Made by a program: the position numbers and the translations under genes. From assembly GCF_028751195.1 (NCBI RefSeq), contig NZ_CP066784.1, positions 1,736,001 to 1,800,000 of the forward strand: DNA of 64,000 nt, written 5' to 3'. This stretch comes from Alicyclobacillus sp. ALC3 (GTDB lineage Bacteria; Bacillota; Bacilli; Alicyclobacillales; Alicyclobacillaceae). Positions 20,574 through 26,885 of the stretch are shown here, piece by piece. Every line of letters begins with the position of its first letter. Within the stretch, counting starts at the first letter, position 1. Below the pieces are notes generated by a model. The model searched no databases and was not told where the DNA came from. It saw only the letters and a list, made by a program, of their open reading frames with translations.

Positions 20574-20756
20574 CTACGCCTTACCAAACGACCAGTGATG
20601 AAAGCGCGTCGGCATGCCGTAAGCCCCAAACGTGTAGAGAACGTCCGCCGGGCAAACCTCATAGCGCATCGGGTAAAAGTCCAGGCCGTTCTTCGTCGCA
20701 AGCTCGGTCATCTGCTCAATGCTCGCCTCGAGCTGCTCCATCTCAGCACTGTTCAT
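20574..20756 (-). CDS. spoVR: spoVR 5' segment (first 59 codons of split SpoVR)
   Basis: Encodes the conserved SpoVR N-terminus (GLDFYPMRYEVCPADVLYT, then GMPTRFHHWSFGK). The ATG overlaps the yhbH stop (ATGA), the sign of an original operon junction. After codon 59 (AAG, Lys) the frame passes the TAAGGC core, adds one Ala codon and hits TAG inside the element. The rest of SpoVR lies at 13120-14404. Joining AAG at 20582-20580 to the codon after AAG at 14403-14401 restores HWSFGKAFHRMKL, exactly the order expected of intact SpoVR. Confidence 0.95.
   Translation of the reverse strand: MNSAEMEQLEASIEQMTELATKNGLDFYPMRYEVCPADVLYTFGAYGMPTRFHHWSFGKA
20578..20583. other. Recombination core, right end of the spoVR element
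   Basis: Plus-strand GCCTTA, identical to 14399-14404. On the minus strand it reads TAAGGC, with the first four bases preceded by TTTGG (spoVR head) and followed by GTAG (element). Confidence 0.8.
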
Positions 20757-21253
20757 GCGGGCTTCACCTGCCCTCCTGACGTTGTGAAGAACGTCTTTAA
20801 GGCCCGGTAGACATCACTCTTCTCTTTGATCAGCACCGAGCGAAAGTGCGGGTGTACAAACTTGCCATAGGACGACATCAATGTCGATGAACGCTGGTAC
20901 TGGTTCACTTCCGCGTACCCGAACATCTGCGCACGTTCACACAGCTCCTTAGCGAGTCGCATGACCTTCTCGTTGTCCGAAGTAAGGTTATCGCCGTCTG
21001 AGAAGTGAATCGGATACAGGTTGTAACGGTCCGTCGGGTACTCGCGCTCGACCATCTGCAGCGCGTAGTCGTACGCTGACGAGCAGATAGTCCCGCCGCT
21101 CTCCCCGCGTGTAAAGAAGTGCTCCTCGCTCACCTCCTTGGCTTCCGTATGGTGCGCGATGTAGCGGATCTGCACGTTGTCGTACTTGGTTCGCAAAAAC
21201 CGCGTCATCCAGAAGAAGAAGGTCCGAGCACAGTACTTTTCAAACATCCCCAT
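20753..21253 (-). CDS. yhbH: yhbH 3' segment (residues 220-385 of split YhbH/YeaH)
   Basis: 166 codons beginning MGMFEKYCARTFFFW, the sequence that follows DxSGS in the VWA domain of YhbH (DUF444/YeaH family). Further conserved segments are IAHHTEAKEVSEEHFF, RGESGGTICSSAY and FHFSDGDNLTSDN. There is no good ribosome site before the ATG, consistent with a gene fragment. The first 219 codons lie at 26229-26885. The stop overlaps the spoVR ATG. YhbH acts with PrkA in the stationary phase/sporulation programme; its exact biochemical role is not settled. Confidence 0.95.
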   Translation of the reverse strand: MGMFEKYCARTFFFWMTRFLRTKYDNVQIRYIAHHTEAKEVSEEHFFTRGESGGTICSSAYDYALQMVEREYPTDRYNLYPIHFSDGDNLTSDNEKVMRLAKELCERAQMFGYAEVNQYQRSSTLMSSYGKFVHPHFRSVLIKEKSDVYRALKTFFTTSGGQVKPA

Positions 21254-21254
21254 C

Positions 21255-21256
21255 GA
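21255..21256. other. Candidate crossover dinucleotide, left end of the yhbH element
   Basis: Minus-strand TC at the boundary between the yhbH tail (TCG ATG GGG) and the element (CCCACA). The other copy is at 26230-26231. Three bases further on, TGG is also shared, so the core cannot be fixed by identity alone; dyad symmetry favours TC. Confidence 0.65.
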
Positions 21257-21291
21257 TGTGGGCGCATCAGAATTGAATAATGATATAGGAA

Positions 21292-24678: not shown

Positions 24679-24788
24679 TAAAGGGCTGGTCCGCGTTCGG
24701 GGCCGGTCACCCCAGGCAGGGCATCCAACATCGTCAGATGCAGCCTCTCGCCCTTCCACGCCCCATGCCCAGCCGCCGAGCCGTCCGA

Positions 24789-25772
24789 TTATGTTGCCGG
24801 TCGTTTGCTGGCCAGCAGTGTCACCGTCACCAGCACGCACAGTCCACCTAGCATGGAGGCCAATCCCAGTTGTACGTGTAAGACCGCCACTGCCAGGATT
24901 GAGGCGGACAACGGCTCGGCGCAGGCCAACAGACTTGCTTCCGATGCGGAGATGAATTTGAGACTCGCAATATACACATAGAACGCAATCAACGTTCCGA
25001 ATAACACGACAAAGCTCACGAGCCACCAGGCGCCAAACGTGCTATGCCCTGTGAAATGCCACGGTGGAGTGATGAACGACATGCTGACCCCACCAATCAG
25101 CATTGCCCAACCCACAACGTTGGCAGAGCCGTACGTGTGGAGTAGGCGTTGCGGATAGAGAGAGTAAAATGCGAGCGTTACAGCTGACACTAACCCCCAA
25201 AACACTGCTTGTGGGCTGACCGAGAAAGTGTGAACGTTCCCGTCAGTAACGAGCAGGAATGCGCCACCACATGCCAAGACAACTGCCGCCGTCTGTACGC
25301 CTGTAGGAATACGTCGTTGACGCAGCGCAATATACACGGTGATGAAAATCGGTCCCATGTACTGCAGCATCGTTGCCGTCGCAGCATTCCCGTAGCGGAT
25401 TGCTGCAAAGTACGAGTATTGCACACCAAGCAAACCAATGATGCCAAACAAGACGAGTTTCACAGCGTCTCGCTTGTGCTTCCACACCGCAACTGTCGCA
25501 GGCAGACCTGATTTGATCGAAACGCCGGCCAACAGGAGAAGTCCAGCCACACTCATCCGTACCGTGACCAACCAGCCCGGGTTAAAACCGTAGCGCTGGA
25601 ATAACACTTGTGCCGCAGTCCCGGATACACCCCACAGCACTGCACCTAACAGCACCATCGACAGGCCTTTAAAATGGCCGAGTTTTTTGGTTGCAAGAGC
25701 AGACTCGAACGCCGTGGACAGCGGTTGGGGATTTTGATTCTCAAGGTTTATGTTTGACACCACGTACCCCAC
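24789..25772 (-). CDS. EamA/DMT-family transporter
   Basis: 327 residues from a GTG at 25772 with GGGAGGT seven bases upstream (an ATG at 25811 lacks one). About ten hydrophobic helices in two repeated EamA halves, with LGAVLWGVSGTAAQVLF in the first and a matching ALLACAEPLSASILAV segment near the end (both motifs typical of RhaT/EamA exporters). It exports or imports a small metabolite; the substrate is unknown. Cargo of the yhbH element. No partner gene in the same direction nearby. Confidence 0.88.
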   Translation of the reverse strand: MGYVVSNINLENQNPQPLSTAFESALATKKLGHFKGLSMVLLGAVLWGVSGTAAQVLFQRYGFNPGWLVTVRMSVAGLLLLAGVSIKSGLPATVAVWKHKRDAVKLVLFGIIGLLGVQYSYFAAIRYGNAATATMLQYMGPIFITVYIALRQRRIPTGVQTAAVVLACGGAFLLVTDGNVHTFSVSPQAVFWGLVSAVTLAFYSLYPQRLLHTYGSANVVGWAMLIGGVSMSFITPPWHFTGHSTFGAWWLVSFVVLFGTLIAFYVYIASLKFISASEASLLACAEPLSASILAVAVLHVQLGLASMLGGLCVLVTVTLLASKRPAT

Positions 25773-25989
25773 TGTTGTACCTCCCGCTGGTGTTTTGTTT
25801 ACTTGTAACATACGGCCAATTGGTTCGACTACAGGGAAGTGTTAATGTTATGGTACCATCTGGCGTAGTTCCGGTGGACGTTCGCCCACAACGACAAGAC
25901 CGCTTGGTGGCAAGCCCGGGAACTGTGGCACTCTACACAAATACCACCACCAATACAGTACGAACGGAATCACGAAGCGAGGGATTGGC

Positions 25990-26172
25990 ATGCTCGAGAA
26001 GAAAAAGCTGAATCGACTCAATGAATTGGCGCGAAAGTCAAAAGTTGAACCCCTGACAGAGACGGAGTTAGTAGAACAACAAGCGCTGCGCAACGAATAC
26101 CTGGAAAACTTCCGCAAGGGCTTTCGCGATCAGTTAGACCACATTCATTTGGTCGATAAGGACTGGCAATAG
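25990..26172 (+). CDS. DUF896 (YnzC) family protein
   Basis: 60 residues, ATG at 25990, GAGGG six bases upstream. The sequence pattern LNRLNELARKSKVEPLTETE followed by EQQALRNEYLENFR is diagnostic of the YnzC/UPF0291 family of small helical proteins, of unknown function and partly SOS-linked in Bacillus. Its 3' end overlaps the read-through end of the yhbH 5' fragment on the other strand, 58 bp from the right end of the yhbH element. Confidence 0.9.
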   Translation: MLEKKKLNRLNELARKSKVEPLTETELVEQQALRNEYLENFRKGFRDQLDHIHLVDKDWQ

Positions 26173-26885
26173 TGGAGTGCGTTCCGACGCAGAGATAGCC
26201 AGTCTTTATTAAATCCAGTGGGGTCCACAGAACCACTCGTATCCATGAGCGCCAACACCACAGCGTTCGAATCTGGTTTTTCGATTTCATCCCACGTTTT
26301 GAAACGCAGGTCGTCAGGTAGAATCCGAATTTGTACACTGGCCTCCTTCTGGTTGCGGCGGATGGCCTCGATGAGCGTGCGCTTCTTGTCGATGTTGCCC
26401 ATGAGGCCCTTTTTCCGAACGTCGCGAAACTCGATGTCTTGTGCCACCACGCGGTCTGGCGTCTTCGGCGCGAGGTTGGGCAGTTCGAGTTCGCTGAACA
26501 AGACCTGTTCAATGTCCTCGAGCGCAACATTTGCTTCCAAGTAGTCCTGACCGGGGCCGTCGCCGGCACCTTGCCCAGGGCCTGGTTTGCCTTGTTCTGG
26601 CGCTCCCTTCGCAATGACGTCGCCGACCTGCGAGTCCCCATCGCCAGAACCCGCCTGGCGGCTCTTGTTAAAGTTGTACCGGAACCGATACTCCTCGAGC
26701 GACCGGATTGGAATTTTAATAATCTGGCGTCCGTCCGACATGATGATACTCTCTTCACTAACTAAGTCCGCGAGGTTCTCCTTAATTGCTTCTTTCACCT
26801 TTTCCCTGTGACGTTCCTGGTCTTGGTGCCCCTTGCGGTGCAGGGACCAGTCCTCTTTCTGCAGTGTGAATTCCACAGATGCCAT
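26145..26885 (-). CDS. yhbH: yhbH 5' segment (first 219 codons of split YhbH/YeaH)
   Basis: The ATG at 26885 follows AAGGAGGGGG. The protein has the YhbH N-terminus with a Gly/Gln-rich linker (PEQGKPGPGQGAGDGPGQD) and reaches VLALMDTSGS at residue 219, then crosses into the element, reading VDPTGFNKDWLSL and stopping at 26145. In an intact gene DxSGS is followed by MG.FEKY, which is exactly what stands at 21253. The insertion therefore splits the VWA metal-site motif. Located 110 bp after prkA, as in the usual prkA-yhbH order. Confidence 0.95.
   Translation of the reverse strand: MASVEFTLQKEDWSLHRKGHQDQERHREKVKEAIKENLADLVSEESIIMSDGRQIIKIPIRSLEEYRFRYNFNKSRQAGSGDGDSQVGDVIAKGAPEQGKPGPGQGAGDGPGQDYLEANVALEDIEQVLFSELELPNLAPKTPDRVVAQDIEFRDVRKKGLMGNIDKKRTLIEAIRRNQKEASVQIRILPDDLRFKTWDEIEKPDSNAVVLALMDTSGSVDPTGFNKDWLSLRRNALHYCQSLSTK
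26230..26231. other. Candidate crossover dinucleotide, right end of the yhbH element
   Basis: Minus-strand TC in the codon TCT (Ser219), followed by element sequence TGTGGACCCC. Partner of 21255-21256. Confidence 0.65.

What the first reader, a model, noticed from the sequence alone, without database searches (positions are those of the whole stretch)
20753..26885. yhbH is independently split by a second, 5-kb serine-recombinase element at its VWA metal-site motif
YhbH residues 1-219 end in DTSGS at 26229 and residue 220 on begin MGMFEKY at 21253. The intervening DNA has a different large serine recombinase 35 bp from one end. Excision at minus-strand TC would give GGT-TCG-ATG-GGG (Gly-Ser-Met-Gly), restoring the canonical motif.
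Basis: partly seen in the sequence, partly recalled or inferred. Interest (0 to 1): 0.95.

Follow-up and report, generated by a model that had tools for sequence, protein, structure and literature searches.

The report
Sporulation gene split by excisable element
In this relative of Alicyclobacillus, the sporulation gene yhbH is cut in two by a 5-kb DNA element that carries its own recombinase, and related bacteria have this gene and its two operon neighbours cut at six recurrent points; the elements are predicted to be cut out during sporulation, so that a working operon would be rebuilt by DNA editing in each mother cell.

Summary
yhbH (TIGR02877, spore YhbH) is interrupted in its Ser219 codon by a 4,975-bp element with a 2-bp TC core. 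In-silico excision gives a 385-aa YhbH with the DTSGSMG metal-site motif, scoring 550.8 bits against a cut-off of 467.95.

The case is larger than the finding. Of 59 genomes of the order, 54 can be judged: yhbH is split at this site in 17 and at a second site (about residue 340) in 18, 29 genomes in all (recounted). prkA and spoVR have two further sites each. A large serine recombinase was found at 63 of 65 places examined, and the six sites match six recombinase clades. Of 55 split genes, 49 rejoin into uninterrupted full-length frames. The split halves are under strong purifying selection (dN/dS 0.015 and 0.029).

An intact paralogue exists in the genome, but it fails the YhbH cut-off (399 bits), and six split relatives show no other copy.

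Best explanation: a skin-like intervening element, excised in the mother cell. Excision itself is untested. New variant of a known kind.

The parts
26229..26885 (-). yhbH 5' part (residues 1-219, ends DTSGS)
   Evidence: PF04285; TIGR02877 positions 2-214
20753..21256 (-). yhbH 3' part (from the core; MGMFEKY... to stop)
   Evidence: PF04285; TIGR02877 positions 215-371
26230..26231 (-). core dinucleotide TC, left junction (attL)
21255..21256 (-). core dinucleotide TC, right junction (attR)
21255..26229 (-). intervening element, 4,975 bp
   Evidence: elements at the same site in 16 other genomes of the order
21292..22803 (-). large serine recombinase, 503 aa
   Evidence: PF00239, PF07508, PF13408; phrog_95 integrase; clade Y221
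22800..23102 (-). small ORF (100 aa from a GTG start chosen by its ribosome-binding site), stop overlaps the recombinase start; candidate recombination directionality factor (inferred)
   Evidence: relative directly upstream of the recombinase in 13 of 13 elements of the window's family; no PHROG match; a longer reading of it has no Pfam match
23125..23149 (-). conserved promoter-like motif GGACAATCCTCTTCGCGCATACGGT
   Evidence: GCATA in 13 of 13, CATANNNT in 12 of 13; one of two pattern matches in the genome, the other inside a gene
23401..24387 (+). cargo: DUF4349 protein
   Evidence: PF14257
24789..25811 (-). cargo: EamA transporter
   Evidence: PF00892; also in the G001 element
25990..26172 (+). 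cargo: DUF896 small protein
   Evidence: PF05979
26996..28894 (-). prkA, intact here, first gene of the operon
   Evidence: PrkA family model below its cut-off (324 against 576 bits)
20574..20756 (-). spoVR 5' part (to about residue 59), cut by the second element of this operon
   Evidence: PF04293
13123..14412 (-). spoVR 3' part (residues 56-488 of the reference)
17771..19573 (+). serine recombinase of the spoVR element (clade S60)

Best explanation
The 5-kb insert in yhbH is an element of the skin/vrin kind that its own large serine recombinase is predicted to excise precisely at a TC core, which would rebuild an intact yhbH in the sporulating mother cell while the spore would keep the split copy. 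Shown by sequence: the split, the core, the in-frame restoration of the metal-site motif, the recombinase next to the junction, and conservation of the arrangement and of both halves. Inferred: the small ORF whose stop overlaps the recombinase start is the directionality factor that turns integrase into excisionase; the conserved motif 22-33 nt before its start in relatives is its developmental promoter; excision is confined to the mother cell, so loss of the element there is not inherited. The operon prkA-yhbH-spoVR as a whole has six such recurrent sites, and some relatives would need up to five excisions to assemble it.
For: Join in frame, GSMG restored, 385 aa; joined protein 550.8 bits against the TIGR02877 cut-off 467.95, each half alone below it. 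Same split with in-frame join in 17 genomes of the order; recombinase on the same strand 8-92 bp before the start of the aligned C-half in 17 of 17. Core identical left and right in 16 of 16 scored, TC in 15 and AG in one. attP arms palindromic, mean 15.5 of 26, against 4-10 for attB. 49 of 55 split operon genes rejoin to uninterrupted full-length frames. dN/dS between the window genome and G001, both split: N-half 0.015, C-half to residue 317 0.029, unsplit PrkA 0.019. Recombinase distances track host PrkA distances (Mantel rho 0.75, 0 of 2000 permutations as high). Small ORF and promoter-like motif in 13 of 13 elements of the family. Six relatives with the split have no other DUF444 match (G007, G062, G037, G049, G047, G052). 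Precedents: skin, vfbin, vrin, SPbeta/spsM, gin (passages of PMC4191935, PMC6957869, PMC5595907). yhbH is a mother-cell gene in B. subtilis: listed under sigma-E in a table of PMC3416734 (passages) and SpoIIID-bound and SpoIIID-affected (passage of PMC517825).
Against: No excised circle or joined gene has been seen; no reads were available. An intact paralogous operon exists in this genome and could cover for it. The sigma factor that would read the motif is not identified: a scan for the recalled sigma-E consensus scored no better than shuffles, upstream of the small ORF and of prkA, and 46 recombinases of the other five sites show no such shared motif. The small ORF was not recognised in the four elements of the second family, and its role rests on position and conservation only; its model is poor outside residues 1-40. 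One of 16 attP palindromes (G010, 11 of 26) is no better than background. At site B and at spoVR-284 recombinases do not track the host. It was not tested that this organism sporulates.
Confidence: 0.83

Rival explanations
1. Dead gene: the element destroyed yhbH and the intact paralogous operon at 3.28 Mb does the work; the halves are relics.
For: Intact prkA2-yhbH2-spoVR2 in the same genome.
Against: dN/dS 0.015 and 0.029 on the two halves while split in both genomes compared; no stop or frameshift in the YhbH pieces of any of the 29 split genomes (two of them cut by contig ends); the paralogue fails the YhbH cut-off (399 against 467.95 bits) while the joined gene passes; six split relatives have no second match; such paralogues also occur in genomes with unsplit yhbH (G005, G016, G024).
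Confidence: 0.07
2. Mobile element whose excision is not developmental: a prophage relic or small integrative element that leaves at low frequency or on DNA damage, and restores yhbH only by chance.
For: Phage-sized versions use the same site: predicted viral contigs of 25.7 and 54.8 kb with the C-half after a related recombinase, and inserts of 15-54 kb at the site outside the order. No shared motif at the other five sites.
Against: The window element shows no phage structural gene by Pfam or PHROGs. Host-tracking recombinase and purifying selection on the halves need regular, timely joining. All three target genes form one operon of sporulation-annotated genes.
Confidence: 0.08
3. The two halves work as separate proteins that reassemble.
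For: Both halves are open frames and conserved.
Against: The break lies inside the metal-site motif; the window's N-half runs on into 27 element-coded residues, and the element sequence at that point varies between genomes; no ribosome-binding site is visible before the window's C-half ATG.
Confidence: 0.01
4. Assembly artefact.
For: The window genome's contamination estimate is 5.68%.
Against: The same arrangement in 17 assemblies, among them Alicyclobacillus mengziensis (complete), A. macrosporangiidus, A. ferrooxydans and A. tolerans.
Confidence: 0.01

Closest known systems
Sporulation gene-intervening elements: skin (sigK), vfbin (spoVFB), vrin (spoVR), SPbeta (spsM), gin (gerE), yin (yabG)
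   Same: Insert in a mother-cell gene, element-coded serine recombinase, short core, in-frame gene on precise excision (passages of PMC4191935, PMC6957869, PMC5595907; yin from the abstract of PMC10747680 in listings).
   Different: Target yhbH is not among those named in what I read; element only 5 kb without recognised phage genes; six recurrent sites in one operon, each with its own recombinase clade; excision not yet shown.
vrin in spoVR of Geobacillus thermoglucosidasius
   Same: spoVR, of the same operon, as target (PMC4191935 passage).
   Different: Which spoVR site vrin uses was not checked (primary paper not held); yhbH and prkA were not reported in what I read.
Heterocyst interruption elements of cyanobacteria (nifD, fdxN, hupL)
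   Same: Elements in functionally linked genes of a terminal cell type, recombinases mostly clustering by element variant, variable cargo (PMC4874684 passages). Best NCBIfam match of the window recombinase is XisF of the fdxN element, below its cut-off (147 against 375 bits).
   Different: Spore-formers and a sporulation operon; membership in the XisF family not met.
SPbeta integrase SprA/YokA with SprB
   Same: Closest solved large serine recombinase by sequence (9dxh, E 1e-25).
   Different: Match covers residues 59-373 only; target gene differs; partner protein not compared.
Alicyclobacillus phage MMB025 integrated in sigK
   Same: Alicyclobacillus host, phage integrated in a sporulation gene (PMC13141910 passages).
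   Different: 105-kb phage, other gene; its integrase is only 26% identical.

Membership tests
Sporulation gene-intervening element | Interrupts the coding region of a sporulation (mother-cell) gene | tested here: met
   Both halves match TIGR02877 spore_yhbH, positions 2-214 and 215-371; mother-cell expression is known from B. subtilis only
Sporulation gene-intervening element | Precise removal restores the reading frame | tested here: met
   385-aa ORF, 550.8 bits against cut-off 467.95; 16 of 17 yhbH at this site complete in silico, the other cut by a contig end
Sporulation gene-intervening element | Carries its own site-specific recombinase | tested here: met
Sporulation gene-intervening element | Short identical core at both junctions | tested here: met
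   2 bp, 16 of 16 scored
Sporulation gene-intervening element | Excised in the mother cell during sporulation, under sporulation control | not testable with these tools
   No reads or expression data; motif found but sigma factor not assigned
Large serine recombinase | Resolvase, recombinase and zinc-ribbon domains in one long protein | tested here: met
   PF00239, PF07508, PF13408 above cut-offs
Prophage | Phage structural or replication genes | tested here: not met
   Five element ORFs against PHROGs: the integrase is the only one with a named phage function; EamA matches one family of unknown function
XisF (fdxN element excision recombinase) | NCBIfam NF041201 score above 375 | tested here: not met
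   147 bits
Recombination directionality factor (small ORF) | Switches the recombinase to attL x attR | not tested
   Only position and conservation
spore YhbH equivalog (intact paralogue) | TIGR02877 score above 467.95 | tested here: not met
   399 bits

The most novel reading that the evidence does not exclude
prkA-yhbH-spoVR is an operon that many spore-formers keep in pieces and assemble by DNA editing in every sporulating mother cell: six conserved protein motifs serve as docking sites for six dedicated recombinase clades, and in some species (Ferroacidibacillus organovorans SLC66, G037; metagenome genome JA2.bin28, G047) five separate excisions must all succeed to make one working operon, a somatic genome programme in a bacterium comparable to that of heterocysts.
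Probability: 0.6. Interest if true: 0.92.

Novelty: new variant of a known kind. Interest (0 to 1): 0.86.

Why it matters
The cases I read of have one element in one sporulation gene. Here a single operon is a hotspot with six fixed sites and six recombinase clades, dense in one bacterial order, with the two yhbH sites also used elsewhere in the class. If excision is confirmed, it is a natural set of separate excision systems in one operon, in which one can ask whether splitting is parasitism made harmless by a terminal cell type or a layer of developmental control. It would also mean that a conserved sporulation gene, which looks broken in about half of the genomes judged, is not broken, and it offers recombinase families with mapped target sites.

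Tried and rejected
Dead-gene reading: rejected on dN/dS, intact frames and missing paralogues in relatives. The paralogue as the real YhbH: rejected on the equivalog cut-off. Prophage: no phage gene recognised in the window element beyond the integrase, although phage-sized relatives exist.

Sigma-E consensus scan (consensus recalled, from no call) upstream of the small ORF and of prkA: no better than shuffles. The conserved motif was then noticed in those printed sequences and counted afterwards, so its count is not a blind test. Search for CATANNNT upstream of 46 recombinases of the other five sites: scattered matches, no shared position. Motif search in the whole genome: one other match, inside a coding sequence. 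Structure of the small ORF: mean pLDDT 67, no fold search made. Other recombinases of this genome: one search counts 13 matches; five regions were looked at by eye, no further split sporulation gene recognised; seven were not looked at.

Rows dropped before counts: G050 at spoVR-60 (alignment artefact at a frameshift, not a split). G048 at prkA-293 (overlapping contig ends) and G006 at spoVR-60 (break coincides with contig ends) are not counted as splits, but both are among the 65 places, where they are the two without a recombinase. G025's spoVR split escaped the automatic join and the recombinase table. G043 lacks prkA residues 1-138, unexplained. The class-level survey lists matches only down to a limit and only 30 genomes were looked at again, so its split counts are lower bounds. 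Of the 80 loci, 60 hold no piece of the operon in the stretch fetched: more distant recombinases sit elsewhere, or further than 10 kb away.
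Full report
What is in the window. On the minus strand the operon reads prkA (28894-26996, intact), yhbH, spoVR. yhbH is in two pieces. Codons 1-219 end in ATG GAT ACG AGT GGT TCT at 26229, and the rest begins TCG ATG GGG ATG TTT at 21256. At the break the two sides share TC. Joining there gives a 385-aa protein with DTSGSMGMF, the DxSxS metal-site motif of VWA domains (motif name recalled). NCBI's spore-YhbH model matches the N-half at positions 2-214 and the C-half at 215-371, with no gap or overlap. The joined protein scores 550.8 bits against a cut-off of 467.95, about as much as an unsplit relative (545.4).

The element. It is 4,975 bp long, 56% G+C, like the gene (55%). 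It codes for a 503-aa large serine recombinase 36 bp from the C-half, a small ORF whose stop overlaps the recombinase start, and cargo (DUF4349, an EamA transporter, DUF896). Of five element ORFs searched against PHROGs, only the integrase has a named phage function. The attP that circularisation would form is a near-palindrome (18 of 26 arm positions; 7 of 63,880 window positions do as well).

The second split of the operon. spoVR is also cut, after about residue 59, by an element of about 6.2 kb with a recombinase of another clade at 17771-19573. The window operon would therefore need two excisions.

A second, intact prkA-yhbH-spoVR set does exist in the genome, at C1:3.28 Mb. Its YhbH is 44% identical to the C-half and scores 399 bits, below the YhbH cut-off. 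Such paralogues also occur in relatives with unsplit yhbH (G005, G016, G024). Conversely, six relatives with the split at this site show no other DUF444 match: G007, G062, G037, G049, G047 and G052, at 99, 100, 96, 100, 83 and 73% completeness. The paralogue therefore does not explain the split.

How common it is. All 59 genomes held of the order (25 genera) were searched with an unsplit YhbH. By my tally of its rows (recounted) 54 can be judged: 25 intact, 11 split at this site (A, about residue 221 of the query) only, 12 at a second site (B, about residue 340) only, and 6 at both; 29 of 54 are split. The five not judged are G003 (contig end), G008 and G014 (only a paralogue-like match), G041 (N-half stops at site A, no C-half found) and G044 (no match). 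SpoVR and PrkA searches show further sites: spoVR about 60 and about 284, prkA about 293 and about 508. Adding genomes split only in those genes (G023, G024, G036, G050; G027, G064), 35 of 54 operons have at least one break, 64 breaks in all; G037 and G047 have five each.

Every site restores a conserved motif. An ungapped join at each break was scored against the unsplit reference. Site A gives DTSG-S-MG, site B the NQY/NRSSTLM region, spoVR HWSFGK/AFH and MNEGW/ATYW, prkA ISADE/MIVAHTNE and YCNW/QK. Translating whole pieces, 49 of 55 split genes rejoin into uninterrupted full-length frames. Five of the other six are incomplete in the sequence held (G001, G006, G043 prkA, G054 twice) and one (G050 spoVR) has an internal stop. 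In 16 site-A elements scored, the core pair is identical on both sides: TC in 15, AG in G017, where the serine codon is AGT. attP arms averaged 15.5 of 26 matching positions, against 4-10 for attB; G010 (11 of 26) is the one no better than background.

Six sites, six recombinase clades. Of 65 places examined, 63 have a large serine recombinase in the fetched part. At site A it is on the yhbH strand, 8-92 bp before the start of the aligned C-half, in 17 of 17. At site B it is on the opposite strand, 7-190 bp from the N piece, in 18 of 18. At spoVR-60 it is on the opposite strand in 9 of 9 and at spoVR-284 on the same strand in 8 of 8, at varying distance; at prkA-293 end and strand vary. In a tree of the 63 the site labels need 5 changes, the minimum for six labels; 0 of 200 shuffles did as well (quick method). 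Identities are 28-98% within a site and 16-32% between sites, except prkA-508 against site B at 33-41%.

Old and kept, or newly arrived. Site-A recombinase distances follow host PrkA distances (Mantel rho 0.75; 0.58 within the window's family; 0 of 2000 permutations as high in each). Site B gave 0.16 (225 of 2000 as high), spoVR-284 0.11 (637), spoVR-60 0.35 (91) and prkA-293 0.54 (19). So site A looks mostly inherited, and others turn over more. In the site-A elements held in one piece, the only ORF families shared widely are the recombinase and the small ORF. Between the window genome and G001, split alike, dN/dS is 0.015 (N-half), 0.029 (C-half to residue 317) and 0.019 (unsplit PrkA). In five other pairs with finite estimates the split YhbH pieces gave 0.012-0.056; two more pairs were saturated at synonymous sites. 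This is hard to square with a dead gene.

Candidate control parts. A small ORF with the pattern APPxTxWxxxE, or a recognisable variant, lies directly upstream of the recombinase in 13 of 13 site-A elements of the window's family (ten found by pattern, three more by eye; aligned, where one Trp and one Glu are invariant). It was not recognised in the four elements of the second family; two of those have another small ORF there. A search of 5.8 billion proteins returned 11, one of them the window's own, none with a functional name. GCATA lies 22-33 nt before its start in 13 of 13, CATANNNT in 12 and GACA-N11/12-CATA in 11, against 0.0017 per random 60-mer for the last (noticed first, counted after). 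I infer a directionality factor and its promoter. A scan with the sigma-E consensus as I recall it was negative, and the other sites' recombinases lack a shared motif, so timing could be set differently there, for instance through the directionality factor as in SPbeta and C. difficile skin (PMC5595907 passage).

Beyond the order. A scan of named genomes with the site-A recombinase alignment returned 80 loci, of which 20 hold a piece of the operon. Eleven of these are relatives of the order, named through matching contig lengths. Eight more, from Paenibacillus, Cohnella and Brevibacillus, hold a YhbH half that breaks at the same point (P. terrigena, P. selenitireducens, P. naphthalenovorans, P. 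xerothermodurans, Paenibacillus sp. LHD-117, C. panacarvi, C. nanjingensis, B. fulvus). In 299 genomes drawn evenly from the class, 205 have a YhbH match. Looking again at 30 of them, most chosen for low scores or several matches, site-A splits appear in 3 (G161, G220, G309; G220 has the contig length of the B. fulvus record) and site-B splits in 11, four of them with 47-80 kb between the pieces; these are lower bounds. Among nine fetched genomes with a break or displaced piece at site B, the best-matching recombinase representative is a site-B one in nine of nine; the three fetched site-A splits each hold a recombinase that matches a site-A representative, best or second to the site-B one beside it (seven representatives compared, no tree). 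Predicted viral contigs of 25.7 and 54.8 kb have the C-half after a related recombinase, so phages probably are the source. In G180, G235, G299 and G315 a site-B type recombinase lies directly after a full-length yhbH, and a second C-terminal match lies elsewhere. The case is clear in G235, where that second piece sits right before spoVR, and weak in G299 and G315 (31-33% identity, no spoVR beside it): there the element seems to bring a substitute 3' end instead of relying on excision.

Literature. Intervening elements are reported in sigK, spoVFB, spoVR, spsM and gerE (passages of PMC4191935, PMC6957869, PMC5595907, PMC5025042) and yabG (abstract of PMC10747680 in listings). In B. subtilis yhbH is listed under sigma-E (table passages of PMC3416734) and lies by a SpoIIID-bound site (passage of PMC517825). 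I found no report of a split yhbH or prkA in seven searches of the held open-access library (listings only, with passages read from the papers named here and from PMC12700454). The primary paper on vfbin and vrin and all supplements were not readable, so a mention there cannot be excluded.

Verdict. What is new is the target gene and, above all, the scale: one operon with six recurrent sites, each with its own recombinase clade, broken in 35 of 54 genomes of an order. Excision in the mother cell is the untested step.

Noticed in passing
window 13123-20756: spoVR is split by a second element of about 6.2 kb with its own serine recombinase (17771-19573, +); two ORFs that read as aldehyde and alcohol dehydrogenases (recognised by eye, not searched) lie inside it.
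   Followed up: partly
G000:C1:3280726-3285278 (L002, L003): Intact paralogous prkA-yhbH-spoVR operon; its YhbH scores below the YhbH equivalog cut-off. In one search no paralogue of this kind in the order is broken by a long insert; that of G011 lies in two adjacent frames.
   Followed up: partly
L272, L274, L276, L278 (G315, G235, G299, G180): Site-B type recombinase directly after a full-length yhbH, with a second C-terminal match elsewhere in the genome (clear in G235, weak in G299 and G315): the element seems to supply a substitute 3' end.
   Followed up: partly
G017 yhbH site B (131 kb) and G027 spoVR-60 (135 kb): Very large distances between gene pieces, far above the few kb usual at these sites; phage-sized or composite inserts.
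   Followed up: no
L125 (G043:C4:113000-117000): prkA residues 1-138 are missing next to the rest; possibly a further site near residue 139 or a rearrangement.
   Followed up: no
window 23185-23300: Runs of two short tandem repeats (GGCTCCAC and GGGTCAGC) inside the element just upstream of the small ORF; a 21-bp repeat also lengthens the small ORF itself.
   Followed up: no
L216 (IMG/VR contig, 4.5 kb): Metagenomic contig with a site-A type recombinase, a YhbH C-half and spoVR ending near residue 283, i.e. probably split at both sites.
   Followed up: no
L162 (Cohnella panacarvi, second locus): A second recombinase of the site-A type with scattered YhbH fragments around it; looks like a decayed copy.
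   Followed up: no
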